The position numbers and the translations under genes are program-made. 64,000 nt of DNA from Gemmatimonadota bacterium (GTDB taxonomy: Bacteria > Gemmatimonadota > Gemmatimonadetes > Longimicrobiales > Gaopeijiaceae). Location of the stretch: contig SKKN01000001.1 in assembly GCA_007121455.1 (NCBI GenBank), positions 62,001 to 126,000 of the forward strand, written 5' to 3'. Shown here piece by piece: positions 17,201-60,201 of the stretch. Under the pieces are notes generated by a model that did not search any database, was not told the origin of the DNA, and was given only the letters and a program-made list of their open reading frames with translations. The first letter of the stretch is position 1; every line of letters begins with the position of its first letter.

Positions 17201-18244
17201 TTGGCCTCGTTCTCGAAGTGGTTCAATTCCGGTACATTCGTCCCTGTGAACGACATCGCCGTAGATTTGGGAACTGCGAACACCCTCGTCTACGTGAAAG
17301 GCGAAGGCATCGTTCTGAACGAACCCTCGGTCGTGGCGGTGGAGAAGGGTTCGCGGCGCATTCTGGGAATCGGCCTCGAAGCCAAGCGCATGCTCGGGCG
17401 CACGCCTGAGAACATCGAAGCGGTGAGGCCCCTCAAGGATGGGGTGATCGCGGACGTGGACGTGACGGAGATGATGCTCCGCCACTTCCTCAAACAGGTC
17501 ACGGCGAAGAGGATCTTCCGGATCAAGCCGAGGGTGGTCGTGGGCGTCCCGTCCGGGATCACGGAGCTCGAGCGGAGAGCGGTGCGCTCGTCGGCGATTG
17601 CGGCAGGTGCAAAGGCCGTATACATGGTCGCGGAGCCGGTGGCTGCGGCCATTGGCGTGGGGCTTCCGATCGAGACGCCCACCGGCAACATGGTCATCGA
17701 CATCGGCGGAGGAACGACGGAGATCGCGGTCATCGCGTTGTCGGGGATTGTCTCGAACACCTCGATCCGCGTGGGAGGGGACGAGCTGGATTCGGCCATC
17801 GTGACCTTCCTCCGCAAGAACTACAATCTTCTGATCGGGGAGCCCACTGCCGAGGCGGTGAAGATCCAGATCGGCTCCGCGTTCGACTTCGGGGAAGAGC
17901 GGAGCATGGATGTGAAGGGCCGGGACCTGGTGAGCGGAATTCCGAAGACCGTGACGGTCCACTCCCAGGAAGTGCGAGAGTGCATCCAGGAGCCGATCCA
18001 GTCCATCGTCGAGGCGGTCCGGCGCTCCCTCGAGATCACACCACCCGAACTCTCCTCGGACATCGTGGACCGGGGGATCACGATGACCGGTGGAGGAGCG
18101 ATGATCCGGGGGCTCGACCGGCTGCTGCAGCACGAAACGAACCTCCCGATTCACGTCGACGAGGAGCCGCTGACCTGCGTGGTCCGCGGCGCCGGCCGGA
18201 TCCTCGATGACCTCCAAAAGTACCGAAGCGTGCTGGCGACTTGA
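17201..18244 (+). CDS. mreB: Rod shape-determining protein MreB
   Basis: Actin-like ATPase that forms membrane-bound filaments guiding lateral wall synthesis. The 347-residue product has the phosphate-1 motif DLGTANTLVYVKG, the phosphate-2 motif MVIDIGGGTTEIAVI and the adenosine motif TGGGAMIRGLDRLL. The TTG start at 17201 keeps a short amphipathic-looking N-terminus. A GTG at 17246 is a possible shorter start. It heads the mreBCD-mrdA-rodA cluster, implying a rod-shaped cell or rod ancestry. Confidence 0.95.
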   Translation: MASFSKWFNSGTFVPVNDIAVDLGTANTLVYVKGEGIVLNEPSVVAVEKGSRRILGIGLEAKRMLGRTPENIEAVRPLKDGVIADVDVTEMMLRHFLKQVTAKRIFRIKPRVVVGVPSGITELERRAVRSSAIAAGAKAVYMVAEPVAAAIGVGLPIETPTGNMVIDIGGGTTEIAVIALSGIVSNTSIRVGGDELDSAIVTFLRKNYNLLIGEPTAEAVKIQIGSAFDFGEERSMDVKGRDLVSGIPKTVTVHSQEVRECIQEPIQSIVEAVRRSLEITPPELSSDIVDRGITMTGGGAMIRGLDRLLQHETNLPIHVDEEPLTCVVRGAGRILDDLQKYRSVLAT

Positions 18245-18279
18245 AGCTTCGTCGTCGGCAGGAGGACCGTCGGACCTTC

Positions 18280-18291
18280 AAAAAAAAAAAA
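18280..18291 (+). repeat. A12 homopolymer between mreB and mreC
   Basis: Twelve consecutive A residues stand out in a genome of very high GC content. They lie 36 nt after the mreB stop codon and 33 nt before the mreC start. They are flanked by CCTTC (18275-18279) and GAAGG (18297-18301), and a second CCTTC follows at 18307-18311. Confidence 0.9.
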
Positions 18292-18324
18292 CGGTAGAAG
18301 GACGCTCCTTCAAACCTCTGGATT

Positions 18325-19299
18325 ATGCCCGCGTACGAGAGTGAAGGCGGCGACCGAGCAGGACGACGGCAGATCGTTCTCTCCCTCCTGTTCCTGATTC
18401 TGGCAGCGACGACCCTCTACCTTCCCGGCCATGTCCAGGAGGAGGTCGCCTCCTCTCTCCGGAGCTCCGTCCTCTACCCGTTCATCGCGACGCAGCGTGC
18501 TGTGGCCGACACCCGGATCCGGGCAACCCGGATGGAGGAGCTGCAGGCGCAGCTCGATTCCGCCGTGGCATCCGTATCAGCTCATCGAACGCTCGCGCAT
18601 GAAAACCGCCAGCTCCGTTCTCTGCTTGGACTACGGGAGATCGCCGGACCTGCCTTCGTGCCTGCCACGGTCGTTCGGCCCGGGACGCGCGGATCCGAGA
18701 GCATGCTGCTTTTGAATGTGGGTTCGGCCGATGGTGTGGCTGTGAACGATCCCGTCGTTTCCGCCGAGGGGCTCGTGGGCATCGTGCGCGAGGTGCGGGG
18801 GCGCTCTGCGATCGCCATGGATTGGACCCATCCCGATTTCCGGGTCAGTGGAATGGCCGTCGATGGGGAGGTGTTTGGCATCGTGGAGCCACGACGTGGC
18901 AGCTTCCGGGAGGAGGATCGGCTCATGCTGTCGGGCACGCCCTTCCACGCCGAGCTCGCCGATTCCAGCCTCGTGGTCACGAGCGGCCGTGGGAGCGTCT
19001 ACCCGCGGGGGATCACGGTCGGGAGGGTCCATTCCCTCGCGGAGGCGGAAGCCGGCTGGCGGAAGAGCTATTGGATCCTTCCGGCAGTCCGGCCCGCGAG
19101 CGTCACGCACGTGCTCGTGATGACGGACTCCGAGGCGGAGTCCCCGGACGACGTGCTCCACCTCTTCACCGAGGAGGAAGCCGTGGACGAGGAGGGGGAG
19201 GATTCGGAAATCGGCGGCGAGGAGGGGGCCGGTGAGGGTGGGGGTGGGGCGGAAGGGGATTCGCAAAGCGAGAGCGAGGACGTGGGAGGAGGCGGGTGA
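18325..19299 (+). CDS. mreC: Rod shape-determining protein MreC
   Basis: Periplasmic scaffold of the elongasome. The 324-residue product has one N-terminal membrane segment (about 17-38), a coiled coil (about 60-100, ending ENRQLRSLLGLRE) and the beta-rich MreC core with GSADGVAVNDPVVSAEGLVG. A Glu/Gly-rich C-terminal tail of about 45 residues is longer than usual and of low complexity. It is separated from mreB by 80 nt that include an A12 tract. The stop overlaps mreD. Confidence 0.92.
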   Translation: MPAYESEGGDRAGRRQIVLSLLFLILAATTLYLPGHVQEEVASSLRSSVLYPFIATQRAVADTRIRATRMEELQAQLDSAVASVSAHRTLAHENRQLRSLLGLREIAGPAFVPATVVRPGTRGSESMLLLNVGSADGVAVNDPVVSAEGLVGIVREVRGRSAIAMDWTHPDFRVSGMAVDGEVFGIVEPRRGSFREEDRLMLSGTPFHAELADSSLVVTSGRGSVYPRGITVGRVHSLAEAEAGWRKSYWILPAVRPASVTHVLVMTDSEAESPDDVLHLFTEEEAVDEEGEDSEIGGEEGAGEGGGGAEGDSQSESEDVGGGG

Positions 19300-19778
19300 A
19301 GGGGAGCTGGAGGTTCTGGGGAGTAGTTGCCACTCTCCCCATTCTTCACTTCTTTATCCACGTCGGGTTGGGATTCAGTGCGTGGTCGCCCGACCTCCTC
19401 ACGGTCGCGCTTCTGCTCGGGGCACGTGAGCTGCGGATGGGAGCCGCAGCGGGGCTCGGGTTCTTCTTCGGGCTCATGGAGGATGCGTTTTCGGTGCTCG
19501 CCTTTGGAGCGAACACGATGGCGATGACAATCGTGGGACTGGTGGGCGCGCGGTCACGGGACCTGTTTATGGGTGACTCGCTCCTCTTTCTCATCTCCTA
19601 CCTCGCCCTGGGCAAGTGGGTGAGAGACCTGCTCCACTGGCTCGTCAGTGCCCAGGACATCCGAGCCCCGGCGCTCGAGATGCTGCTGTTCGATGCTCCG
19701 ACGCAAGCCATCTATGCGGCGCTGGCCGGCGCGCTGCTCATCTTGCTTGTGGGGGCCTGGAGAGAGCCCATACGATGA
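19296..19778 (+). CDS. mreD: Rod shape-determining protein MreD
   Basis: Small integral membrane partner of MreC. The 160-residue product is almost entirely hydrophobic with five or six predicted membrane segments, and it carries the FFFGLMEDAFS motif characteristic of MreD. The GTG start overlaps the mreC stop, and the TGA overlaps the PBP2 ATG. Position and topology make the call secure despite low sequence conservation in the family. Confidence 0.9.
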   Translation: MKGSWRFWGVVATLPILHFFIHVGLGFSAWSPDLLTVALLLGARELRMGAAAGLGFFFGLMEDAFSVLAFGANTMAMTIVGLVGARSRDLFMGDSLLFLISYLALGKWVRDLLHWLVSAQDIRAPALEMLLFDAPTQAIYAALAGALLILLVGAWREPIR

Positions 19779-21610
19779 AGGCACAACAACATCCGCATGA
19801 GCGACGGCGGCGTGCCCAGGTGGCCACTACCTTCCTCCTCCTTCTCATGGGGGTCCTGGTCGCGAGCTTCTTCCGCGCCCAGGTCGTCCGATCGTCGACG
19901 TGGACTCTCCAGTCGGATTCGAACCGGTTGCGTGTCCTTCCCGTTCCGGCGCCCCGCGGGACGGTCTTCGATCGTGAAGGACGGATCATCGCGGACAACG
20001 TCCCCTCGTACTCGGTCTCCCTTTTTCCGGCGCCTGCCGACTCGATCCGGGCAACGCTGCATCGGATGCAGCCCTATCTCGACCTGTCCGAAGCACGGAT
20101 CGAGGCCCTTCTGGAAACCGCTTCCCGTAACCGCCGGGCCCCTTTGCTGGTCGCGATGGATGCCGGCTTCGAGGAGGTCGCCGCGCTCGAGGAGCGGAGG
20201 GCGGACTTCCCCGGAGTCTTCCTGGAGATGCGCCCCCGACGGCGGTACAACGGGGGGCAGGCGGTAGCCCATGCACTCGGATACGTAGGGGAGGTCTCCG
20301 CGGGCGAACTCGAGAGCTCCCGCTTCCAGGAGTATGAGCAGGGGATGATCGTCGGGAAGGAGGGCCTCGAGCGCCAGTACGAGGAGAACCTCCAGGGCGA
20401 TCGCGGAATCCGGTACGTCGAAGTCGATGCGGTAGGTCGGATCGTGGGGTCGTTCGAAGGGCAGCTGGACACTCCTGCGCGAGCCGGAGGGGACATCCAC
20501 CTGAACCTCGATCTGGCGCTGATGGAATGGGTTCACGAGATCTTTCCCGAAGGCGCACGAGGTGCCGTCGTGGCCCTCGATGCCCGTGACGGAGGGGTTC
20601 TCGCCCTCTACTCGGCCCCGAGCTTCGACCCGAACGACTTTGTCGGGGGGATCGACAGTGAGACGTGGACTCAGCTGAACGCGGACCCGGATCGACCCCT
20701 CTTCAACCGGGCTGCGCTCGGTCGGTACCCGCCGGCCTCGACCTGGAAGCTGGCGACCGCGGCGATCGGCCTCGAACTGGGCGTCGTCGACCCGCACGAG
20801 GTGATGCCGGTTTCGTGCACCGGTGGCTTCCGCTACGGAAACGTCTACCGTCGATGCTGGCGGGCCGAGGGGCACGGCCGACTCAATCTGGCGGAAGCGA
20901 TCAGCCATTCCTGCAACGTCTATTTCTATCAGCTCGGGCTACGGATTTCCCTCGAACAGCTCGTCCATGAGGGCGCGCGCCTCGGGTTCAGCGAGGAGTG
21001 CGGGATCGATCTGCCGCGGGAGTCACCGGGAGTCTTCCCTGCCGATCTCGATTACTGGGAAACCCAGTTCGGGTACCGGCCCTACGAAAACGAGGTGCTC
21101 TCCATCGCCATCGGACAGGGGCCGAACGACCAGACCCCACTGAAGCTGGCGCAATTCTACCTGGCTCTGGCGGGGGACGGGACGGCTCCGGTTCCGTCCC
21201 TGATCCGCACCGCGGATCCCCCCGAGGCATGGTCGCTCGACCTCGCTCCCGAGAGCATCGAAGCGCTACAGGACGGCCTCCGTAAGGTTGTCGAAGCGGG
21301 AGGTACGGCCTTTCTCTCTTCGCTCGAGCACTGGGACCTGATAGGAAAGACAGGCACGGCTCAGCAGGTGCCGGGGCGACCGCCTCATGCGTGGTTCGTG
21401 GGGATGGCCGGTCCGAGGGAGAGCGAGCCCGAGATCGTCATCGCCGTACTCGTGGAGGAGGGTGAGAGCGGGTCCGCCGCCGCTGCACCGGTGGCGGCGA
21501 AGGCTGCGGACTTCTTCCTCCGGCAGCGCTATGACATTCCCGTCGACACGATCCAGACGTTGGGCGAGCACCTTCGGAGCGGTACGCCCGCTCCATGGGC
21601 TCGATGGTAA
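19775..21610 (+). CDS. mrdA: Penicillin-binding protein 2 (elongation-specific transpeptidase)
   Basis: Cross-links peptidoglycan during elongation. The 611-residue product has an N-terminal membrane anchor (about 15-35), the PBP dimerisation domain with RGTVFDREGRIIADN, and a transpeptidase domain. Its three signature motifs are STWK (Ser322, Lys325), S-C-N near residue 381 and K525-T-G-T. The ATG overlaps the mreD stop by 4 nt. The open frame extends further upstream, but this start gives the standard short cytoplasmic tail before the anchor. Confidence 0.95.
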   Translation: MKAQQHPHERRRRAQVATTFLLLLMGVLVASFFRAQVVRSSTWTLQSDSNRLRVLPVPAPRGTVFDREGRIIADNVPSYSVSLFPAPADSIRATLHRMQPYLDLSEARIEALLETASRNRRAPLLVAMDAGFEEVAALEERRADFPGVFLEMRPRRRYNGGQAVAHALGYVGEVSAGELESSRFQEYEQGMIVGKEGLERQYEENLQGDRGIRYVEVDAVGRIVGSFEGQLDTPARAGGDIHLNLDLALMEWVHEIFPEGARGAVVALDARDGGVLALYSAPSFDPNDFVGGIDSETWTQLNADPDRPLFNRAALGRYPPASTWKLATAAIGLELGVVDPHEVMPVSCTGGFRYGNVYRRCWRAEGHGRLNLAEAISHSCNVYFYQLGLRISLEQLVHEGARLGFSEECGIDLPRESPGVFPADLDYWETQFGYRPYENEVLSIAIGQGPNDQTPLKLAQFYLALAGDGTAPVPSLIRTADPPEAWSLDLAPESIEALQDGLRKVVEAGGTAFLSSLEHWDLIGKTGTAQQVPGRPPHAWFVGMAGPRESEPEIVIAVLVEEGESGSAAAAPVAAKAADFFLRQRYDIPVDTIQTLGEHLRSGTPAPWARW

Positions 21611-22842
21611 CGGCTTCCCTTCGGCGGTGGACCGGCGACGCGCCCCTCGTGGCGGTCAGCCTCGCCCTCTCGTTGTTCGGGGTCGCGATGGTCTACTCGG
21701 CGGGCATCCTGAACGTGCCCAGCCCGATCGTGGAGGGGGCGTGGCTCCGCCAGCTCGTCTGGCTCGCAGTCGCCCTGGTCGCCTTCGCCGTCGCATCGCG
21801 GATCGAAAGCCGCTGGTTCGAGTGGGCTGCCTTCCCTGCGTATACCATTGCCGTCGTTCTCCTCGGCGTCACCCTGGTTCTGGGCACAGGAGCCGGGACT
21901 GCGGAAGGGGTGGGGAGGTGGCTCCAATTCGGCGGCATCCGCTTCCAGCCCGCGGAGGTCGCGAAGCTCGCCACGATCCTTGCGCTCGCTCGTCTCCTTT
22001 CCACTCGCGAGGAGGCCCCCACGAGCTTGAAGGCCCTCCTCGCTCCGGCGTGTCTCGTGGGCCTCCCGCTCGGGCTCGTCGTGCTCCAGCCGGACCTGGG
22101 AACCGCGCTCGCATTTGTCGGCATCCTCTTCGCCGCCCTCTTCTGGGCCGGGGTGCCCGGCACGCTGCTCTTCCTCCTCGCGAGCCCGGGCCTCGCCCTG
22201 ATCCTTAGCTTCGATACGCGAATCTGGTCCGCGTACTTCATCGGGCTCGCCGTCCTCCTCTACGTGCTCCGGTACCGGCTCTACCTCTTCGAGTCGGTGG
22301 GCGTGGCCCTCGCCAACATCGCGGCGGGCACGATCGCCTTCCCGCTCTGGAACTCCCTCGCTGCGTATCAGAAGAACCGCCTTCTCGTTTTCCTCGATCC
22401 CGGCCTGGACCCTCGTGGTGCCGGATGGAACTTGATCCAATCGAAAGTCGCGATCGGGAGCGGAGGGCTCACCGGGAAGGGGTTCACACAGGGAACCCAG
22501 AAGCGCCTGGACTTCCTGCCCGAGCAGCATACGGACTTCATCTTCTCGGTCATCGGCGAGGAACTGGGGTTCATCGGGACCACGTTGGCGATCCTCGCCT
22601 TCGCGGTCCTCCTGCATCGCCTCGTGCGCCTGGCCGAGAAAGCGGCGGATCCCTTTGCCGGCCTGGTGCTGTTCGGTATCTTCGGGGCTTGGCTCATGCA
22701 CATCTTCATCAATGTGGGGATGACGATCGGGATCGTACCGATCACTGGAATCCCCCTCCCGTTCGTGAGCTATGGTGGAACCTTCCTCGTCATGTGCTGG
22801 GTTTCGGTAGCGCTCGCCGTGCGGATGGCGAGCGAGGACTGA
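21595..22842 (+). CDS. rodA: Peptidoglycan glycosyltransferase RodA
   Basis: SEDS-family polymerase working with PBP2. The 415-residue product has about ten membrane segments, including the LQPDLGTALAF motif. The loop QKRLDFLPEQHTDFIFSVIGEE, read here as a continuous conserved region, marks RodA/FtsW proteins. An alternative ATG at 21604 is nine bases downstream. The 16-nt overlap with mrdA indicates coupling of the polymerase and transpeptidase partners. Confidence 0.95.
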   Translation: MGSMVTASLRRWTGDAPLVAVSLALSLFGVAMVYSAGILNVPSPIVEGAWLRQLVWLAVALVAFAVASRIESRWFEWAAFPAYTIAVVLLGVTLVLGTGAGTAEGVGRWLQFGGIRFQPAEVAKLATILALARLLSTREEAPTSLKALLAPACLVGLPLGLVVLQPDLGTALAFVGILFAALFWAGVPGTLLFLLASPGLALILSFDTRIWSAYFIGLAVLLYVLRYRLYLFESVGVALANIAAGTIAFPLWNSLAAYQKNRLLVFLDPGLDPRGAGWNLIQSKVAIGSGGLTGKGFTQGTQKRLDFLPEQHTDFIFSVIGEELGFIGTTLAILAFAVLLHRLVRLAEKAADPFAGLVLFGIFGAWLMHIFINVGMTIGIVPITGIPLPFVSYGGTFLVMCWVSVALAVRMASED

Positions 22843-50638: not shown

Positions 50639-51475
50639 ATGGGTACGCTCTTCGTGGTGAGCACGCCGATCGGAAACCTCTCGGATCTCACCCGCAGGGC
50701 TGAGGAAGCGCTGGGAGAGGCGGCCGTCGTCCTGGCCGAGGACACGAGGAGGACGGGGGTGCTTCTCCGCCACCTCGGGGTGGAGACGCCCTTGATATCG
50801 CTTCACCAGCACAACGAGGCGGGGCGGACCCGGGAGGTTCTCGGTCGACTGGCCTCCGGCGCCGTGCTCGCTCTGGTGGCGGACGCGGGGACTCCTCTCG
50901 TCTCGGACCCCGGGGGCCGGCTCGTGGAGGCCGTGATTGCCGAGGGGCATACGGTGGTTCCAATCCCGGGGCCCTCGGCCGTACTGGCGGCGCTCGTCGG
51001 GTCGGGCCTTCCCGCCGACCGATTCGCGTTTCTGGGGTTTTCGCCGCGAAAGGGGAGGGATCGCGAGGCGTTTCTGGCTCGGGTGGCGGACAGCGAGGAG
51101 ACCACGATCCTCTTCGAGTCCCCGGAGCGCATCTCGGCGCTTCTGGACGACCTGGCAAAGCGTTGTGGGAGGACCCGTAGAGTGGCGGTGGCCCGGGAGC
51201 TCACGAAGCTTCACGAAGAGTTCGTGCGTGGAACCTTGATCGAGGCGAGCCGCTATTACCGTGAGAACCCACCGCGGGGCGAGATCACCGTGGTGGTGGA
51301 GGCGGCTCCCGAATCCGCGGAGGGGGAGCTTTCGGACGAAGAGGCCGTGCGGGTGCTCGCCCGCTCGGCCCTCGACCGGGGGCTTCGTCCGTCGGCGGCG
51401 GCGAGGGAAGTCGCCAGGCGCCTCGGAGCGCCCCGGAACCAAGTGTACCGGATCGTGCAGTCCCTCGACTCCTGA
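50639..51475 (+). CDS. rsmI: 16S rRNA (cytidine-1402-2'-O)-methyltransferase RsmI
   Basis: Methylates C1402 of 16S rRNA with S-adenosylmethionine. The 278-residue product has the tetrapyrrole-methylase fold with TPIGNLSDLTRRA, the AEDTRRTGVLLRHLG motif, DAGTPLVSDPG, and PGPSAVLAALVGSGLP. The GFSPRKGRDREAFL loop of RsmI follows. ATG 50639 was used because it begins directly with the family N-terminus. It precedes the DUF4159 run by 15 nt. Confidence 0.94.
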   Translation: MGTLFVVSTPIGNLSDLTRRAEEALGEAAVVLAEDTRRTGVLLRHLGVETPLISLHQHNEAGRTREVLGRLASGAVLALVADAGTPLVSDPGGRLVEAVIAEGHTVVPIPGPSAVLAALVGSGLPADRFAFLGFSPRKGRDREAFLARVADSEETTILFESPERISALLDDLAKRCGRTRRVAVARELTKLHEEFVRGTLIEASRYYRENPPRGEITVVVEAAPESAEGELSDEEAVRVLARSALDRGLRPSAAAREVARRLGAPRNQVYRIVQSLDS

Positions 51476-51490: not shown

Positions 51491-52204
51491 ATGACGACAT
51501 CCGTCCTACTCCTCGGGCTTGCGTTGCTCGTCTCGGCCGATCGGGAGTCGGCGGATCCCCGAGTCGCCGACATCGAAGGCATCGGCGTCGAACAGACGAC
51601 GGAGCTGTTCACGATCGGGCGCCTCGAGTACGGTGGCGGAGGTGACTGGTACGCGAATCCCTCCTCCCTTCCGAACCTCCTCGAAGCGATCCGGGAGCGG
51701 GCGGGCCTGCCCGTCGCCGAGCGGGAGGTGACGGTGTCTCCACTCGATCCCAGACTCCACGACATTCCCTATCTTCACATGACGGGTCACGGGAACGTGG
51801 AGTTCACCCCTGCCGAACGCGAAGCGCTCCGCGAATACCTCTTCGCCGGGGGCTTTCTGCACGCGGACGACAACTACGGGATGGACGAAGCCTTCCGCAG
51901 GGAGATGGCGGCCCTCTTCCCGGACCGCTCCATGGTGGAGCTTCCTCCCGATCACCCGATCTTCCATGTCTTCTACTCCTTCCCGGAGGGCATCCCGAAG
52001 ATCCACGAGCACGACGGGCACCCTCCTCAGGCTTTCGGGATCTTCCACGAGGGGCGTCTGATCGTGCTCTACAGCTACGAGACGGACCTCGGCAACGGGT
52101 GGGAGGATGAGGAGGTCCACGGGAATCCTCCGGAGGTGCGCGAGCAGGCGCTCCGCATGGGGGTGAACCTCTTCTTGTACGCCCTGAGTCAGGCGGCTCC
52201 GTGA
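51491..52204 (+). CDS. DUF4159 secreted protein
   Basis: A 237-residue protein with a hydrophobic N-terminal signal (about 1-16). The DUF4159 core has TIGRLEYGGGGDWY, YLHMTGHGNVEF, and AGGFLHADDNYGMDEAFRREM (read as the hallmark segment, residues 119-139). The strand-turn-helix around Asp126/Asp127 sits where a class I GATase-like fold has its nucleophile Cys, so it may be a non-enzymatic or altered member. DUF4159 genes usually accompany MoxR/BatA/DUF4175 clusters of the envelope. Its stop overlaps the next gene by 4 nt. Confidence 0.85.
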   Translation: MTTSVLLLGLALLVSADRESADPRVADIEGIGVEQTTELFTIGRLEYGGGGDWYANPSSLPNLLEAIRERAGLPVAEREVTVSPLDPRLHDIPYLHMTGHGNVEFTPAEREALREYLFAGGFLHADDNYGMDEAFRREMAALFPDRSMVELPPDHPIFHVFYSFPEGIPKIHEHDGHPPQAFGIFHEGRLIVLYSYETDLGNGWEDEEVHGNPPEVREQALRMGVNLFLYALSQAAP

Positions 52205-55200
52205 CCGGACCGCACGCGGACCGGTCGACGCGGGACGAGGAGCCCGCCGGGCTGGAGGGGGGCGTCGCGGGTCTCGTCTCGACGATCCGGGGCCGCCTCC
52301 TGCGGCACGGCGCACTCGCCGCGATCCTCTGGTGGGGCAGCCTGACCTGCGCCGTTCTGACGCTTGCATGGGTGCTCGCGGGCAGTGGCGGCTGGGAGGA
52401 GGGAGCGGTCGCTCCACTCCTGCTCCTCGCGGCAGTCGTGCTCGGAGCCGCGGGTGCCGGGGTGGCGTTCGCGGGGGCGAAGCGGAGCGCGCTCAAGGAG
52501 GAGAGGGTCGTCCGGCACCTCGAAGAGGCGAGGGGGCTCCCGCAGGGCCTCCTGAGGGGGTCGCTCGAGTTGGCCCGCGGCTCCGGGCAGGCCTCGTTCT
52601 CCCTCGCCCGCGAGGCGGAACGGTCCGTTCTCTCGCGGGCCGGCGGAAGGGAGCTTTCGGCCGGCCGGCTCGAGGAGCGCCTCCGCCGGGCGGTGCGAAC
52701 CGGAGGAGGGGCTCTCTGCGTCACCTTCTCACTCGTCGTCCTCCTCCTTCTCCTCTCCCCGGACCGGGCGCTCCGCGCCTGGGCCGGAGTCGGAACGTCG
52801 GTCTCCGTTCTCGCGGCCTCCCCCCTTCCGTCGCTCCTCGTCGAGCCCGGGACGGTCGAGGTCCCCAGGGGCGACGACCTCGAAGTGCGGATCGCGGCGG
52901 GGCCCCGTGAGCATGTCTTCCTCCACCTCCGCAGAGCGGGGGAAGTCCCGGCGACGGATACGATCGAGGTGGCGGGAGGGGAGGGGGCGGTCCACATCCG
53001 GGACGTTCGTGCGCCTCTCGAATACTGGGTGAGCGCTCCCGATGGTGACGAGACTCCGCACTACGCGGTCACGCCGGTCGACCCCGTCTTTCTCTCGGGC
53101 GTTCGGCTCGAGGTGATCTTCCCCGCACATACGGGGCTGGGCCTGGAAGAGTACCGTGGAGAGATCCCTCCCCTCTCCCTCCCGGTCGGCAGCGAGGTTC
53201 GGCTCGAGGCGCGTACGAGCCGGGAGCTCACCTCCGCCTCGCTCGCGGTGCCCGATGACGAAGAGGTCGTGGAGCTGAACGTGGATGGCAGGTCCCTCGA
53301 GGGGACGTGGACGCCCCGGCGCTCCGGTCGTTACGACTGGGATCTCATCGACCGGCAGGGGGAGGGCGTGTCGTCCGTGACCCTTCCGCCGCTCGACTTC
53401 ACGCTCGTCGCGGATTCGGTGCCACAGGTGGAGATCCTCTTCCCCGAGAGGGACGAGGTCCTCCCCCTCTCTCGCCGCCAGCCGCTCACGGTCGAGGCGC
53501 GCGACGACTTCGGTCTCGAGCGGCTCGAGGTCGTCGCGTACCGGGAGAACTCAGAGGGAGAGGCGTCGGACCCGGTCGTCGCCGGCACGGACCTGGAGGG
53601 AAGCCGGAGAGCGACGATCCGCTCCGTTCTCGACGTCACGGGCTGGGAGCTCGTACAGGGGGACGAGGTCCGGTATTACGCCCGTGCCGTGGACAATCAC
53701 CCCTCCGGCCAGGAAGCGCGGTCCGAGGAGTTCGTACTCCGCGTTCCAAGCGGCTCCGAACTGGGCGCGGAGGCATCCCGGCAGCTCGGCGAGGCATCGG
53801 AGCGCGTGGAGTCCTTGGCGGAGCGGGCGCGATCCGCGGAGGACGAGACGCGGAATCTGGCTCGGCAAAGCCAGAGCGTGCGGGAGGGCTCGGGTTCGGG
53901 GGATCCGGGCCGAGGCCGAACCCCATCGGAAGGAGAGGACCGCCTCGACTACAGTACTGCCCAGGAGCTCCGGCAAAGCCTCGAGGGGCACGAGGGGATC
54001 GTGGACGAGCTCGAGTCGATGCGCGAGGAGCTGGACGAGCTGGCTCGGGGCCTGGAGGAGGCGGGTCACTCCGACCCCGATCTCGGAACGGACCTCCAGG
54101 AACTTCGGGATCTCCTGGAGCAGATGACCTCCCCCGAGCTCCGAGAGAGGCTTCAGGACATCGACCAGGCACTGGACGATGGGGATCTGAGCGCCGTTCG
54201 GGAGGGGCTGCGGGAGCTGATGGAACAGCAGTCCGACCTCCGGGAAGGGCTGGACGAGTCCCTCGAGCGGTTCCGCCGGGCCGCCGCGGAGCAGGAGATG
54301 CGGGCATCGGGCCAGGAAGCGGAGGAGCTGGCGCAGGAGGAGCGACGGTTGGCGGAGGCCTTCGAGGAGGGTTTTGATCCCCAGGAGGGGGCCCAACGGC
54401 AGGCCGAGCTCGAGGAGCGGACAGAAGTGCTCGAGGAGCGGCTCCTCTCCCTGAGCGAGCGGCTGGAGCAGATCGACGAGTCCAGTGCGGCGGAGGCTGC
54501 GCGAAGCTCCGCCATGGACGCGCAGGAGGCGCGTCAGGCGATGGCGGACGCGGCCGCCGCCGCGGAGATTGGCGACGGCGAAGGGGCGGCGGCCGAGGCG
54601 GGTGAGGCAGCCGAGCGGCTCGAGGCGCTGACGGAGGCGCTCGACGAGGCTCAGCAGCAGATGGCGGAGGAGTTCCGGGAAGCGCTCAGGCACGCGCTCG
54701 AGCAGACCGCGCACGATGCGCTCGGGCTCGCACGCCGCCAGGCCGATCTGATCGAGTCGATGCCCCAGTCGGGCCGAAGCCGGCGAGCGGGCGAGCTCCA
54801 GGAGGAGGAGGCGATGGTCCTCCAGGGGCTCCGCAACCTGGCCGCTCACCTCGCGCACGCGGCGCGGATGGCTCCCGATATTTCTCGCCGTCTGGGTCCC
54901 GCACTCGGAGGGGCGATGGAGGCGGTCGAGGAGACGGTGAGCGCCCTTTCCGCAAGCCGCGCGGCCGGTCCGTCTCCCCGCCGTGCAGCGGGCGATGCGC
55001 ACGAGGCGCTGAACCGCCTCGCCCATCAGGCGTTGCTCCAGGCGGAGCAGGCCGGTGAGGACGGGCCGTCGAGCGCGATGGAGTCCGTCCTCGAACAGCT
55101 CGAGGCGCTCGCTCAGCAGCAGGGGGAGCTCCAGCAGGAATCCGAGTCCCTCCTCCCGATGGAGATGGGTCTCGAAGCAATGATGGAGGCGCTTCAGGAG

Positions 55201-55650
55201 CTGGCGGCGGGGCAGTCCGATGTCGCGGGGGGGCTCGACGACCTCGCCCAGCAGCCGGGCGGGGAGTCGGACGTGCTCGGGGACCTCGACGAGATGTCCG
55301 AGGAGGCGCGGGACCTGGCACAGGAGCTCGAAGGAGGACGGCTCGATGCGGAGACCATCGAGCGGCAGGAGCGCCTCTTCCAGAGGTTGTTGGATGCGGG
55401 GAGGACCCTGGAACGAGACGAGCAGAGCGATGACCGGGAGGGCACCACCGCAGTGGAGGTGGATCGTCCGGAGGTCGCTCCGCTCCCAGCCGAGCTTCTG
55501 GAAGGGATGCGCTTCCGACCTCCGAACGCGGCGGAGCTCGAGGCACTCTCCCCGGGAGAGCGGCCGCTGGTCCTCGAGTACTTCGAGCGCCTGAATCGGC
55601 AGGCGCCGCCTCGCGCCCCCGAGGGCGGAGAGCCGGAGGGATGGCGATGA
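52201..55650 (+). CDS. DUF4175-like giant membrane protein with long coiled coil
   Basis: A 1149-residue protein. Two membrane segments lie near 35-90 and one near 175-195. Beta-rich, probably periplasmic domains follow (about 205-500) with PSLLVEPGTVEVPRG and DEVRYYARAVDN repeats. The remainder is a very long Glu/Gln/Leu/Arg-rich coiled coil (about 505-1100) with many EELR/EQLE heptads. The layout matches the DUF4175 proteins found beside DUF4159. It would span from membrane to periplasm as a structural tether. The GTG start overlaps the DUF4159 stop by 4 nt. Confidence 0.75.
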   Translation: MTGPHADRSTRDEEPAGLEGGVAGLVSTIRGRLLRHGALAAILWWGSLTCAVLTLAWVLAGSGGWEEGAVAPLLLLAAVVLGAAGAGVAFAGAKRSALKEERVVRHLEEARGLPQGLLRGSLELARGSGQASFSLAREAERSVLSRAGGRELSAGRLEERLRRAVRTGGGALCVTFSLVVLLLLLSPDRALRAWAGVGTSVSVLAASPLPSLLVEPGTVEVPRGDDLEVRIAAGPREHVFLHLRRAGEVPATDTIEVAGGEGAVHIRDVRAPLEYWVSAPDGDETPHYAVTPVDPVFLSGVRLEVIFPAHTGLGLEEYRGEIPPLSLPVGSEVRLEARTSRELTSASLAVPDDEEVVELNVDGRSLEGTWTPRRSGRYDWDLIDRQGEGVSSVTLPPLDFTLVADSVPQVEILFPERDEVLPLSRRQPLTVEARDDFGLERLEVVAYRENSEGEASDPVVAGTDLEGSRRATIRSVLDVTGWELVQGDEVRYYARAVDNHPSGQEARSEEFVLRVPSGSELGAEASRQLGEASERVESLAERARSAEDETRNLARQSQSVREGSGSGDPGRGRTPSEGEDRLDYSTAQELRQSLEGHEGIVDELESMREELDELARGLEEAGHSDPDLGTDLQELRDLLEQMTSPELRERLQDIDQALDDGDLSAVREGLRELMEQQSDLREGLDESLERFRRAAAEQEMRASGQEAEELAQEERRLAEAFEEGFDPQEGAQRQAELEERTEVLEERLLSLSERLEQIDESSAAEAARSSAMDAQEARQAMADAAAAAEIGDGEGAAAEAGEAAERLEALTEALDEAQQQMAEEFREALRHALEQTAHDALGLARRQADLIESMPQSGRSRRAGELQEEEAMVLQGLRNLAAHLAHAARMAPDISRRLGPALGGAMEAVEETVSALSASRAAGPSPRRAAGDAHEALNRLAHQALLQAEQAGEDGPSSAMESVLEQLEALAQQQGELQQESESLLPMEMGLEAMMEALQELAAGQSDVAGGLDDLAQQPGGESDVLGDLDEMSEEARDLAQELEGGRLDAETIERQERLFQRLLDAGRTLERDEQSDDREGTTAVEVDRPEVAPLPAELLEGMRFRPPNAAELEALSPGERPLVLEYFERLNRQAPPRAPEGGEPEGWR

Positions 55651-56291
55651 CGGGCCTGCCAATGGGTGTGGCGTTCGCGCTGGTCGTCCTTTCGGGGAGC
55701 CCCGTCGCTCCCGAACGGGGCGCCTCTCCGGCGGATACCCTACCTGCGCTGGAACGGGGGTACGAGCTCCTGCGAGGCGACCAGCCGGCGGAGGCCCGTG
55801 GTCCCCTGATGGAGGCCGTGCCGACCTTGCCGAGCGCGAGGGGGACGACGGTTCTCCGGCTCGTCTCCCTCCTCGACCGGGTGGAGGAGCCGGCCGACCG
55901 GCTCGCCGCCCAGGCCTTCCTCGCAATCGAGGACGGGGAACCCGAGGAGGCGCTGAGGATTCTGGAGGAGGGACTGGAGGAGGCACGGGAGGAGGATCGA
56001 GCGCCCCTCCTGGCCCTCGCCGCGGACGCCGCAGACCGGTTCGACCGGGAGCGCAGCGTGCAGCTCCGCACCCGTCTCTTCGAGCAGCATCCCGATGCCC
56101 TCGAGACCGTGGAGGCGGCGATCGCTCTTGCGCGTTACCATTCGGCCACCCTCGAAGGCGCGGAGGAGGCGCTCGCGATTCTCGAGGCGGTCATCGTCGC
56201 ACGCCCGAACCATCCACTCGCGCCCGAAGCCCGCCGCCATTTCGAGCGGCTCCGGGAGCGGGTTCGACGGGAAGGAGGATTCCCCCGATGA
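55647..56291 (+). CDS. Secreted TPR-like helical repeat protein
   Basis: A 214-residue protein with a signal peptide (about 1-17) and a series of helical hairpins with TPR-like spacing (LERGYELLRGDQPAEA, AQAFLAIEDGEPEEALRIL, AEEALAILEAVIVARP). ATG 55647 was preferred over 55641 because GGAGG is 7 nt upstream and the ATGA overlap with the previous stop is the pattern of this operon. It probably acts as a periplasmic adaptor between its neighbours, which is inference. Confidence 0.65.
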   Translation: MTGLPMGVAFALVVLSGSPVAPERGASPADTLPALERGYELLRGDQPAEARGPLMEAVPTLPSARGTTVLRLVSLLDRVEEPADRLAAQAFLAIEDGEPEEALRILEEGLEEAREEDRAPLLALAADAADRFDRERSVQLRTRLFEQHPDALETVEAAIALARYHSATLEGAEEALAILEAVIVARPNHPLAPEARRHFERLRERVRREGGFPR

Positions 56292-57544
56292 GAGTCTTGG
56301 TTCTCGTCCTGCTCACAGCCCTCATCCCGATGCTTCCCAGCGCCCTGGGCGCGCAGCACCTCCTCGTGCCGATGGACCGGGAGCAGGCGAATCATCTGCG
56401 GGCGTACGGACTCACCTACTGGGCGTTAGAGCGAGGAGAGGAGGCCGAGTGGCTCCTCAACTACCGCGACGGTGCATTCCTTTTGCCCGACCGGGAGGAG
56501 GTTCGCCGCGAGGCCTCCGTGAGGGGGGTCTCCGTCGTCGCCAAGGACGCCTCCGAGGTGGCCCGGATCCGGAGCACGATCGACAGGTCGAACATGGAGG
56601 CGGTCCTCCTGGAGTCCGCTCCGAGGATCGCGATCTACACACCGCCCCACACAGCGCCCTGGGACGATGCGGTGACCCTCGCGCTGACCTACGCCGGCAT
56701 TCCCTACGAAACGATCTGGGATCCCGAGGTGCTCAGCGGGGAGCTCGGCGACTTCGACTGGCTCCACCTTCACCACGAAGACTTCACCGGCCAGTACTCG
56801 AAGTTCTTCATCACGTACGCCGGTGCGTCCTGGTTCCAGGAGGAGATGCGGAGAAACGAGGAGGTGGCGGGGCGCTTCGGCTTCCCTCACGTGCCCGCGC
56901 TGAAGGAGGCGGTAGCCCATGAGATCCGTACCTACGTGGAGGAGGGGGGCTTTCTCTTCGCGATGTGCTCTGCGACCGAGACGATCGACCTCGCCCTCGC
57001 CGCTGACGGTGTGGACATCGCGGCGGCCTTCGTCAACGGGTTGCCACCCGACCCCGACGCCTCCGAACGGATGGACTGGTCCCGGGCATTCGCCTTCCAG
57101 GGAGCCCGCATCCAGATCGCTTCTTCGGTGAATGCGTTTTCGGACATCGACAGCCACCAGGTGAACACCCAGTGGCGCCAGCCGCTCGGCTACTTCACCC
57201 TCTTCGAGTTCAGCGCGAAGATCGATCCGGTCGCATCGATGCTCGTCCAGAACCACGAGTCGGTGATCCCCGACTTCTACGGCCTGACGACCGCCTTCGA
57301 TCAGGCCCGGATCCGCCCCGGTGTCACGATTCTCGCGCAGGAGGGAGACCGTGCGAAATACATTCACGGTTCGCTCGGAGAGGGGACCTGGACCTTCTAC
57401 GGCGGGCACGACCCGGAAGACCCCGAGCACCAGATCGGTGACGCACCCACGAACCTGGACCTCTACCCGAACTCGCCGGGGTATCGGCTGATCTTGAACA
57501 ACGTACTCTTCCCGGCTGCGAAGCCCCAGCCCCAGAAAACCTGA
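56288..57544 (+). CDS. Secreted conserved protein of the family often labelled 'asparagine synthetase B'
   Basis: A 418-residue protein with a signal peptide (about 1-22). Diagnostic segments are YWALERGEEAEWLLNYR, PWDDAVTLALTYAGIPYE, the HLHHEDFTGQ motif (160-169), GGFLFAMCSATETID with Cys227, and the closing HDPEDPEHQIGDAPTNL and NSPGYRLILNNVLFP. They match, from memory, a family common in Bacteroidota and databased as asparagine synthetase B. It lacks the N-terminal Cys and PP-loop of real AsnB. The Cys227 turn resembles a GATase nucleophile elbow. ATGA overlap upstream with GAAGGAGG; its stop overlaps the next frame. Confidence 0.75.
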   Translation: MRVLVLVLLTALIPMLPSALGAQHLLVPMDREQANHLRAYGLTYWALERGEEAEWLLNYRDGAFLLPDREEVRREASVRGVSVVAKDASEVARIRSTIDRSNMEAVLLESAPRIAIYTPPHTAPWDDAVTLALTYAGIPYETIWDPEVLSGELGDFDWLHLHHEDFTGQYSKFFITYAGASWFQEEMRRNEEVAGRFGFPHVPALKEAVAHEIRTYVEEGGFLFAMCSATETIDLALAADGVDIAAAFVNGLPPDPDASERMDWSRAFAFQGARIQIASSVNAFSDIDSHQVNTQWRQPLGYFTLFEFSAKIDPVASMLVQNHESVIPDFYGLTTAFDQARIRPGVTILAQEGDRAKYIHGSLGEGTWTFYGGHDPEDPEHQIGDAPTNLDLYPNSPGYRLILNNVLFPAAKPQPQKT

Positions 57545-60201
57545 GCCAGGAACGCCCCCCTCTCGCCCTCGCTCCCGAGGCCGCGGAGCGAATTCGCCGC
57601 GAGATCGAGCGCGCCGGGGGGCGAGAGGTTTGCTTCCTCGCCTCCGTCGAACCGGGGGGTACGATCCGGGACCCGAGGCCCGTGGCCCGCGGCAACCGGC
57701 AGGCGGTCCTCGTTGCGGCCCGGGATGCACCCGAAGGCACCCTCGTCCTGCACAACCATCCCTCCGGGCAGCTCGAGCCGTCCGACGCGGACCTGGCCGT
57801 GGCGGCACGGCTGTACCAGGAGGGACTCGGCTCGGCGATCGTCGACAACGCCGTGCAGGGCATGTACGTCGTCGTGGAGCCGCCGACTCCGAGGGTGGTG
57901 GAGCCGATCGACCTCGAGGGGCTCGAGGAAATGCTCGGCCCCGAGGGAGCGTTGAGCAGAGCGCACCGCCAGTACGAGGACCGGCCGGGGCAGCGGAACA
58001 TGGCAGGGCTCGTGGGAGAGCGGTACAACGAGGGCGGCGTGCTTCTCGTGGAAGCGGGAACGGGCACCGGGAAATCCCTCGCCTACCTCCTGCCCGCGGC
58101 GCTCTGGGCACAGCAGAACGGCGAGCGCACCGTCATCTCGACGAACACGATCAACCTCCAGGAGCAGCTTGTCGGCAAGGATCTCCCCCTTCTGGAGCAG
58201 GTCCTCGGGCGGGAGGTGCGGTGGGCGCTGGTGAAGGGTCGCGGGAACTACGTCTCGATTCGGCGCGCCCGCCTCGCGGCCGAGAGTGCGGGCTCCCTCT
58301 TCGAGGACGACCGGATCGGCGAGCTCGACGCGCTCCTGCAGTGGATCGCCGCCACGGAAGATGGTTCGCTCTCCGATCTGCCGGCTCCGCCCTCGGATGA
58401 CGTGTGGGAAGAGGTTCGGAGCGACTCGGACATCTGCCTCCGGGCCCGCTGCCCCCACTTCCAGGAGTGCTTCTACCAGAAGGCGCGGCGCCGGGCCTCG
58501 GGAGCCGACCTCCTCGTGGTGAACCACCATCTGCTCTTCTCCGACCTCGCGCTTCGGACGGACTCGCCCGAGGCGACCGGATCGCTCGTCCTTCCCGCCT
58601 ACCGCCACGTCGTGCTGGACGAGGCCCATAACGTGGAGGACGCGGCCACCTCGCATCTGGGCTTCGATGTCTCCCGCCTCGGCCTCTTCCGCCTCCTCTT
58701 CCGCCTGGACCGAGGGGGGAAGGGAGTCCTCTCCGCGGTGGAGGATATCCTCCGCGCGCATCCGGCCGAGCCGGACCGTGACGAGCTCCTCGGGCGGGTC
58801 CGCGAGCGTGCCTCCCCTCGAATCCGGGAGGCACGCCAGGCGCTCGAGTCCTTCTTCGACATGCTCGAGCCCCTCGCGCCCGAATCGGGAGAAGGGCCGG
58901 TCCGTCTCGGCCCTCCCGGAGACCTGGAGCCGGCGCACGCCCCGGAGCTTCGAAAGCACCTCGATACCCTCCTCTCCGCACTCCACCGCGCTCGCAAGGA
59001 GGTGGAGGAGCTGCGCTCACGGATGGAGCTCTCGGCGATCTGGGTCGACCGTCTCGAGGGGAGAATTCTGGACCTTCAGAGCGCGGAACGCCGGTTCTTC
59101 GAAGGCGCGGCGGCGCTTCGCACGGTGCTCCTCCCGGCTCCGGAGGAGACGACTTTCGTGCGGTGGATCGAGGTGCGGGGAGGCGGAAGGAGGGCAGGAG
59201 GACGGAACGTCGCCCTCGCGGCCGCGCCCGTGGAGCCCGGCTCCCTCCTCCGGAAGGCACTCTTCGAGCGGGTGGAGACAGCGATTCTCACCTCGGCCAC
59301 CCTCGCGACCCGTGAACGCTTCGCGTTCATTCGCCGGCGCCTCGGCCTGACGGACGTCGAAGAGGAGCCGAGCCTGATCGGCGTCGACGAAGGCGGGGTC
59401 GAGCCGGCGGAACTCGGCCTGACGGACGTGCAGGGCGACGGGGAAGGGGGAGTCGTGGACTGGGGCCCCGATCCCGGACCTTCTCCTTCCCTCGACGTGT
59501 TCGAGGCGCTCGTGCCCTCGCCCTTCGACTTCGGATCGCAGGCCCTCCTCACGGTCCCGACCGACCTTCCGGCTCCGGAGGAGTGGGTGGCGTTCCAGGA
59601 GGCGACGGCCCGGAGCGTGGCGGCGTTCGCCGAGATCACGGGAGGGGGTGTCTTCGTCCTCTTCACCTCCCACAGGGCGACGCGAGCCGTCGCGGACCTC
59701 CTCCGTCGAGGAGGGGCCGAGTCGCGCTGGCGCCTCTTCGTGCAGGGGGAAGCACCCCGCTTTCGACTTCTGGAGGAGTTCGTCCGTTCGGGAGACGGGG
59801 TCCTTCTCGGGACGTCATCCTTCTGGGAGGGAGTGGACGTGCCGGGCCGCCCGCTCCGGGGCCTCGTGATCCAGAAGCTTCCCTTTCGGGTGCCGACGGA
59901 GCCGGTGACCGAGGCGCGGATCGAGGCGATGGAGGGTCGGGGTGAGAACCCCTTCTGGCGCTACGTGCTGCCGCTCGCAGCTCTTCGTCTGAACCAGGGG
60001 TTTGGGCGCCTGATCCGGTCCCGGGACGATCGGGGCGCGGTGCTTCTGCTCGATAGCAGGATCCTCTCCCGCCGGTACGGGGGGTATCTGAGATCTTCCC
60101 TTCCTCCAGCTCCCCGCCGTTCGGGGAGCTGGGACGAGATCGCGGTGGAGCTTCGGCGCTTTTATGAGGGGACCGGTTGCCAGGCCCCGTCCGGAGGGTA
60201 G
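57541..60201 (+). CDS. DinG/XPD-like helicase with N-terminal JAB/MPN domain
   Basis: An SF2 helicase of 886 residues if read from CTG 57541, or 839 from the first canonical codon, GTG 57682. The N-terminal JAB domain (about 10-115) has the metal motif HNHPSGQLEPSDAD (His71, His73, Ser81, Asp84) and a possible metal Glu29. The helicase part has Walker A EAGTGTGKS (171-179), DEAH (360-363), and the motif VI-like NQGFGRLIRS. The iron-sulphur region keeps Cys299, Cys304 and Cys310, but the expected first Cys is Ser239. The GTG start would cut off the first JAB strands, so the upstream start is favoured. No ribosome site is visible, so coupling to the previous stop (CTGA) is inferred. Confidence 0.85.
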   Translation: MSQERPPLALAPEAAERIRREIERAGGREVCFLASVEPGGTIRDPRPVARGNRQAVLVAARDAPEGTLVLHNHPSGQLEPSDADLAVAARLYQEGLGSAIVDNAVQGMYVVVEPPTPRVVEPIDLEGLEEMLGPEGALSRAHRQYEDRPGQRNMAGLVGERYNEGGVLLVEAGTGTGKSLAYLLPAALWAQQNGERTVISTNTINLQEQLVGKDLPLLEQVLGREVRWALVKGRGNYVSIRRARLAAESAGSLFEDDRIGELDALLQWIAATEDGSLSDLPAPPSDDVWEEVRSDSDICLRARCPHFQECFYQKARRRASGADLLVVNHHLLFSDLALRTDSPEATGSLVLPAYRHVVLDEAHNVEDAATSHLGFDVSRLGLFRLLFRLDRGGKGVLSAVEDILRAHPAEPDRDELLGRVRERASPRIREARQALESFFDMLEPLAPESGEGPVRLGPPGDLEPAHAPELRKHLDTLLSALHRARKEVEELRSRMELSAIWVDRLEGRILDLQSAERRFFEGAAALRTVLLPAPEETTFVRWIEVRGGGRRAGGRNVALAAAPVEPGSLLRKALFERVETAILTSATLATRERFAFIRRRLGLTDVEEEPSLIGVDEGGVEPAELGLTDVQGDGEGGVVDWGPDPGPSPSLDVFEALVPSPFDFGSQALLTVPTDLPAPEEWVAFQEATARSVAAFAEITGGGVFVLFTSHRATRAVADLLRRGGAESRWRLFVQGEAPRFRLLEEFVRSGDGVLLGTSSFWEGVDVPGRPLRGLVIQKLPFRVPTEPVTEARIEAMEGRGENPFWRYVLPLAALRLNQGFGRLIRSRDDRGAVLLLDSRILSRRYGGYLRSSLPPAPRRSGSWDEIAVELRRFYEGTGCQAPSGG

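What the first reader, a model, noticed from the sequence alone, without database searches (positions are those of the whole stretch)
51491..60201. Five-gene translationally coupled run of envelope and helicase genes of unknown joint function
DUF4159, a DUF4175-like giant, a secreted TPR-like protein, an 'AsnB-like' secreted protein and a JAB-DinG helicase overlap successively by 4 nt each. Four are predicted exported or membrane-spanning. Such tight coupling argues for matched synthesis. DUF4159 and DUF4175 are known from MoxR/BatA-type clusters, but no MoxR, BatA or DUF58 gene is present here. The group is the best candidate in the window for an undescribed envelope system.
Basis: partly seen in the sequence, partly recalled or inferred. 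Interest (0 to 1): 0.7.

Follow-up and report, generated by a model that had tools for sequence, protein, structure and literature searches.

The report
Conserved four-gene envelope module, function unknown
Four of the five overlapping genes form an undescribed set of exported cell-envelope proteins that Gemmatimonadota, Marinimicrobia and (in pieces) Bacteroidota have kept together, including an almost unchanging enzyme-like protein mislabelled as asparagine synthetase; the fifth gene, a helicase, is a local neighbour.

Summary
The 4-nt overlap chain is real. The last junction needs a CTG start, which the two closest relatives also show. The run is not five genes of one envelope system but four plus a neighbour. 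A (DUF4159), B (DUF4175 relative, inner membrane), C (exported TPR) and D (exported, no Pfam or NCBIfam family) recur in this order across the window's class. They recur in 9 of 9 loci fetched from a second phylum, Marinimicrobia. In a deeper Gemmatimonadota class the set splits into A-B and C-D. A and D occur in exactly the same 37 of 51 sampled Bacteroidota genomes, usually unlinked. E (JAB-DinG helicase) was linked only within the window's class. D is not asparagine synthetase. Its model has a class-I glutamine-amidotransferase-like (ThuA-like) fold with C227, H374 and E377 (near-)invariant in 148 sequences. A has the same fold without the cysteine and matches solved structure 4i66. Most likely reading: an inner-membrane-anchored periplasmic assembly in which B-A is the scaffold arm and C-D the (possibly catalytic) arm. 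Substrate and chemistry are unknown. A strict Type IX secretion link was tested and not supported in Gemmatimonadota. No paper in the searched library describes it.

The parts
50639..51475 (+). rsmI (16S rRNA methyltransferase), gene just upstream of A (15 nt gap), probably same transcript; not part of the module
   Evidence: Pfam TP_methylase and RsmI_C; RsmI-A order kept in most loci of the class
51491..52204 (+). A: DUF4159 protein, 237 aa, probably exported; GATase1-like fold without the cysteine (HADDNYG at the elbow)
   Evidence: PF13709 E 1.8e-68; model pLDDT 87, solved DUF4159 protein 4i66 Z 24.9, then HisH 10.2
52201..55650 (+). B: 1149 aa, three N-terminal hydrophobic segments (37-60, 66-94, 164-191), then a long region with Ig-like and coiled-coil character; DUF4175 relative; GTG start overlapping A by 4 nt
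55647..56291 (+). C: exported TPR protein, shortened here to 214-216 aa (start 55647 or 55641)
   Evidence: weak TPR hits; full-length homologues about 560-640 aa; short forms also in L034 and L050
56288..57544 (+). D: exported 418-aa GATase1/ThuA-like protein, no Pfam/NCBIfam family; C227, H374, E377 and C-terminal KT (near-)invariant
57541..60201 (+). E: JAB (RadC-like, JAMM motif)-DinG helicase fusion, CTG start; lineage-specific neighbour rather than a member
   Evidence: linked only in the window's class
56966..56968 (+). codon of D residue Cys227, at the nucleophile-elbow position (strand 222-226, helix 228-238)
   Evidence: 148 of 148 aligned sequences have Cys; secondary structure

Best explanation
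A-B-C-D encodes one inner-membrane-anchored periplasmic assembly inherited within the FCB bacteria. B is the membrane scaffold with a long periplasmic part; A is its secreted partner domain; C is a periplasmic TPR adaptor; D is the secreted, conserved enzyme-like arm. I infer that D uses Cys227 with His374 and Glu377 as a GATase1-type hydrolase or transferase on an envelope component, and that B-A positions or regulates it. Shown: conserved order, close coupling, phyletic co-occurrence of A and D, predicted folds, invariant residues. Inferred: physical complex, catalysis, substrate. E is not part of it.
For: Order RsmI-A-B-C-D-E in most of 60 loci; all of A-E detected in 43, and most shortfalls are contig ends or the f7/f8/f9 lineages. 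A-B-C-D in order with short gaps or overlaps in 9 of 9 fetched Marinimicrobia loci; D in 29 of 31 genomes there, 21 of them with DUF4159 about 5-6 kb upstream on the same strand. The deep Gemmatimonadota class keeps A-B and C-D pairs at separate loci. Bacteroidota: A and D in the same 37 of 51 genomes and missing from the same 14 (Fisher 8e-13, not phylogenetically corrected). Gemmatimonadota: 15 of 16 D-less genomes also lack A-type DUF4159. B next to A in Bacteroidota genomes G194, G197, G220, G236 and in Kapabacteria G157. B-like and A-like domains fused in paralogues L096 and L103. Folds: D residues 109-414 GATase1/ThuA-like (ThuA-like 1t0b Z 12.7, MetA 11.7, PdxT 11.3); A: 4i66 Z 24.9, then HisH, PdxT, GatD. 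C227 148/148, H374 143/143, E377 141/143, T418 141/142. Profile comparison aligns A and D only at the elbow strand (15 columns, 53%).
Against: No biochemistry, no transcript data, no complex prediction. The catalytic triad was not superposed residue by residue. GATase1-like folds also serve non-catalytically (IFT52 is among A's matches). Bacteroidota scatter the genes, and Flavobacterium G159 has A and D but no detectable B, so a four-part complex is not obligatory. C is strongly shortened in the window's own lineage.
Confidence: 0.5

Rival explanations
1. A and D are not enzymes: their GATase1-like folds bind an envelope ligand or partner, and the module is a structural or sensory complex.
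For: A lacks the cysteine; non-enzymatic GATase1-like domains exist (IFT52 N-terminal domain Z 9.4 with A; a levan utilisome chain Z 12.2 with D); D's C-terminal -KT is as conserved as its putative triad.
Against: Cys, His and Glu (near-)invariant at the expected positions in 148 distant D sequences, with many other invariant polar residues.
Confidence: 0.3
2. The module works as client or effector of the MoxR-DUF58-BatA type of system acting from elsewhere in the genome.
For: Shorter DUF4175-DUF4159 paralogues occur in relatives, and a BatA gene lies beside the DUF4175-like gene in L093; the window's genome has a DUF58-BatA pair on contig C51; DUF58 is found in 148 of 150 genomes.
Against: D-less genomes without an A-type DUF4159 keep DUF58 (for example G010, G032, G125), so dependence is at most one-way; no MoxR or BatA gene was seen at the A-B-C-D loci examined.
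Confidence: 0.2
3. The module is an accessory of Type IX secretion or gliding, which is also an FCB trait.
For: All 37 D-bearing Bacteroidota genomes have SprA, and all 11 SprA-less ones lack D (Fisher 8e-9).
Against: Not strict: Gemmatimonadota G072 has D without SprA; G010, G016, G023, G047, Marinimicrobia G169 and G186, and Bacteroidota G200, G205, G226 have SprA without D. No association in the small Gemmatimonadota sample.
Confidence: 0.1
4. Neutral synteny: unrelated housekeeping genes that happen to stay together behind rsmI.
For: A lies beside rRNA methyltransferase genes in several lineages (RsmI here, RsmE in Bacteroidota L233, L234, L236).
Against: A and D appear and vanish together even when unlinked; A-B and C-D pairs persist after separation; B-A fusions.
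Confidence: 0.1

Closest known systems
MoxR-DUF58-BatA type clusters with DUF4159 and DUF4175
   Same: Same two families adjacent (paralogues L094, L104) or fused (L096, L103); both lineages belong to DUF4159; DUF4175 by relatives.
   Different: Here no MoxR, DUF58 or BatA gene at the locus; B is about 1130 aa instead of about 700; C and D are added.
ThuA-like / class-I glutamine-amidotransferase-like proteins
   Same: Predicted fold of D (residues 109-414) and of A; Cys at the elbow and His-Asp-Pro-Glu after the last strand in D.
   Different: Exported, with an extra N-terminal domain, an invariant C-terminal tail and no known synthase partner; no Pfam match of D to ThuA or GATase.
Hoch_4089 (PDB 4i66), solved DUF4159 protein of Haliangium ochraceum
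   Same: Fold of A, Z 24.9, 33% identity over 185 residues.
   Different: Different phylum; no function reported in the papers searched.
DinG/YoaA/XPD-type helicases (E only)
   Same: Helicase core with Walker A, DEAH box and three of the cluster cysteines.
   Different: N-terminal RadC-like JAB domain; in 19 of 48 E sequences, the window's included, the first Fe-S cysteine is serine.

Membership tests
DUF4159 (PF13709), for A | match above the curated cut-off and the solved fold | tested here: met
   230.5 bits vs cut-off 25.9; 4i66 Z 24.9
DUF4175 (PF13779), for B | profile match of the window protein itself | tested here: not met
   no Pfam family for the window's B
DUF4175 (PF13779), for B | profile match of aligned relatives | tested here: met
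   13 of 28 alignment members, best E 2.2e-13
MoxR/BatA-type cluster | MoxR, DUF58 and VWA/BatA genes at the locus | tested here: not met
   no such match among the window genes scanned; the only DUF58 is on contig C51
Asparagine synthetase B, for D | AsnB catalytic domain match | tested here: not met
   no family hit in Pfam or NCBIfam; 33 members scanned without it
GATase1/ThuA-like fold, for D | class-I GATase-like Rossmann-type fold | tested here: met
   Z 10.8-13.0 against ThuA-like, MetA, PdxT, GATases over 174-226 residues
GATase1-type enzyme, for D | Cys-His-Glu triad in active-site geometry | tested here: inconclusive
   residues (near-)invariant and at expected secondary-structure positions; coordinates not superposed
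Type IX secretion accessory | occurrence only together with SprA | tested here: not met
   G072 has D without SprA; association only in Bacteroidota
JAB/JAMM domain, for E | HxHx7SxxD motif | tested here: met
   present in the window (HNHPSGQLEPSDAD) and in 42 of 48 sequences

The most novel reading that the evidence does not exclude
A-B-C-D is a previously unrecognised ancestral envelope machine of the FCB bacteria, with a new family of exported cysteine enzymes (D) working with a paired non-catalytic protein of the same fold (A) on a membrane scaffold, acting on an envelope component specific to these phyla.
Probability: 0.35. Interest if true: 0.85.

Novelty: new variant of a known kind. 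Interest (0 to 1): 0.62.

Why it matters
An exported protein whose putative active site and last residues are nearly unchanged across several phyla, which has no family model and whose occurrence tracks that of DUF4159, marks an unknown and probably important envelope function of Bacteroidota, Marinimicrobia and Gemmatimonadota. It gives DUF4159 and DUF4175, both without assigned function, a defined partner set. Cultured Flavobacterium and Pedobacter carry A and D, so the function can be tested by gene deletion.

Tried and rejected
Asparagine synthetase: no support. D by sequence against PDB: nothing significant. Strict link to Type IX secretion: rejected as a rule, though the Bacteroidota correlation is strong. 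Defence role: PADLOC hits E only as generic DinG and B through a coiled-coil stretch. E as part of the envelope system: rejected from linkage range and absence of an export signal. A frameshift instead of a CTG start for E: disfavoured because relatives share the position. Literature searches for the DUF4159/DUF4175 pair, the 'asparagine synthetase B' label in Bacteroidetes or Flavobacterium, Hoch_4089 and JAB-DinG gave no description; one DUF4175-annotated protein is AdvA of Acinetobacter, a division protein (PMC7481262), whose relation to B was not tested. The promoter/terminator scan found no terminator-like site above chance.

Full report
Observation. The window is contig C19:62001-126000 of a 3.5-Mb genome. 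The five frames overlap by GTGA, ATGA, ATGA and CTGA. The last overlap requires a CTG start for the helicase, because no ATG, GTG or TTG lies in frame before 57682. That reading is supported by relatives: the two closest loci (L032, L033) also have CTG, and 24 others have GTG, TTG or ATG at the same spot with the frame open. The overlaps are therefore a conserved feature; -4 is the commonest spacing at three of the four junctions in relatives and frequent at the fourth.

What the proteins are. A is a DUF4159 protein. B has three hydrophobic segments near its N-terminus and a long remainder. It has no Pfam match itself, but 13 of 28 aligned homologues match DUF4175. C is an exported TPR protein of about 560-640 aa in most relatives. 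The window's lineage carries a 214-216-aa form that aligns to the C-terminal part; L034 and L050 have similar short forms. D has no family match at all. E has a RadC-like JAB domain with a complete JAMM motif and a DinG-type helicase.

Recurrence in the phylum. D was found in 134 of 150 genomes of the phylum, mostly at 55-76% identity. Among 60 loci fetched around D, the order RsmI-A-B-C-D-E is the rule in the window's class; all of A-E were detected in 43 loci, and many of the rest end at contig ends. Exceptions are informative. Family f7 has B-C-D at the locus. The single f8 locus has B-C-D with A a few kilobases upstream. The other class (f9) has A-B at one locus (L099-L102) and C-D at another (L087-L089). 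So the natural sub-units are A-B and C-D, and E is an addition of the window's class.

Recurrence outside the phylum. A codon-biased pattern scan found D in 119 loci, with the scan cut at its limit: Bacteroidota, Chlorobi/Ignavibacteria/Kapabacteria, Cloacimonadota, Caldithrix and Marinimicrobia. One record labelled Bifidobacterium is probably a mis-binned contig. In Marinimicrobia D was found in 29 of 31 genomes and DUF4159 in 30. In 21 of those with D, DUF4159 lies about 5-6 kb upstream on the same strand (counted by eye). All nine fetched loci show A-B-C-D in order with near-constant gene lengths. In Bacteroidota the genes are mostly scattered. A sits beside RsmE in three of the loci read (RsmE recognised from its sequence, not by a profile). 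D follows dnaB in at least 46 of the 119 scanned loci. B is adjacent to A in G194, G197, G220 and G236. D and DUF4159 occur in exactly the same 37 of 51 genomes. The same holds for the Gemmatimonadota if DUF4159 is split by score: 15 of the 16 D-less genomes have no A-type copy. The Fisher values ignore phylogeny and should be read as description, not as independent trials. In Gemmatimonadota the D-less genomes belong to several families (f3, f5, f7, f9, and the single f4 genome G131), so more than one joint loss is likely.

Folds. The D model (pLDDT 89) has a class-I glutamine-amidotransferase-like domain at residues 109-414, with ThuA-like proteins, MetA, PdxT and GATase domains at Z about 11-13. 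The first residue after strand 222-226 is C227, invariant in 148 sequences. H374 and E377 lie in GGHDPED after the last strand. This is the place and order of the GATase1 Cys and His-x-Glu (established knowledge of the fold; not superposed here). The chain ends in -KT in 109 of 115 sequences outside the phylum, the rest being mostly truncated. The A model (pLDDT 87) matches the solved DUF4159 protein 4i66 at Z 24.9 and then HisH, PdxT and GatD. A and D thus share a fold; the sequence link is a 15-column match at the elbow strand. A has HADDNYG where D has FAMCSATE.

Mechanism. Best reading: a periplasmic assembly with a scaffold arm (B-A) and a possibly catalytic arm (C-D). The A-B link is supported by adjacency in three or more phyla and by fused B-A proteins among paralogues. 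The C-D link is supported by adjacency in Gemmatimonadota, Marinimicrobia and one 'Bacteroidetes' MAG, L190. Joining of the arms is supported by order and by A-D co-occurrence. Catalysis by D is inferred. A non-enzymatic role is the main rival.

Relation to known systems. Shorter DUF4175-DUF4159 pairs occur elsewhere in relatives, and in one locus a BatA gene lies beside the DUF4175-like gene, so the pair is shared with MoxR/BatA-type clusters. The locus itself fails their defining feature. The genome's single DUF58 gene sits beside a BatA gene on another contig. Dependence on Type IX secretion was tested with SprA: perfect inclusion in Bacteroidota, but exceptions in both directions elsewhere. 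No held paper describes the module.

Limits. C's homology outside the phylum rests on weaker profile scores (E 1e-12 to 1e-26) plus position.

Noticed in passing
window 57541-60201 (E, residue 239) and 19 of 48 E homologues: The first of the four DinG-type Fe-S cysteines is serine (NYVS instead of NYxC) in 19 of 48 E sequences, the window's included; the other three are invariant.
   Followed up: partly
window 55647-56291 (C); L034, L050: C has lost most of its TPR region in this lineage (214-226 aa instead of about 580 aa) while keeping a signal-like N-terminus and the conserved C-terminal part.
   Followed up: partly
L109-L227 (Bacteroidota and allies): In Bacteroidota D lies directly downstream of the replicative helicase gene dnaB in at least 46 of 119 loci, while in Gemmatimonadota it is followed by a DinG helicase gene.
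   Followed up: no
L232, L242, L244, L245, L248 and about 10 Bacteroidota loci: A small YjbQ/UPF0047-like gene (identified from its PHTTAGITINENADP motif, from memory) often follows D.
   Followed up: no
L096:7016-10294, L103:9992-13153: Single proteins that fuse a B-like (DUF4175-type) N-terminal part to a C-terminal DUF4159 domain.
   Followed up: partly
D homologues L052, L056, L058-L061, L063, L065, L066, L078: In family f4 D often carries a twin-arginine-like leader (MKRRxFL) instead of the Sec-like leader seen elsewhere, hinting that D may be exported folded.
   Followed up: no
window 17201-22842: Cell-shape cluster: MreB, MreC, a PBP with transpeptidase domain, RodA/FtsW.
   Followed up: no
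L158 (CALPQG020000255.1): Contig labelled Bifidobacterium breve carries a Bacteroidota-like D gene; probably mis-binned.
   Followed up: no
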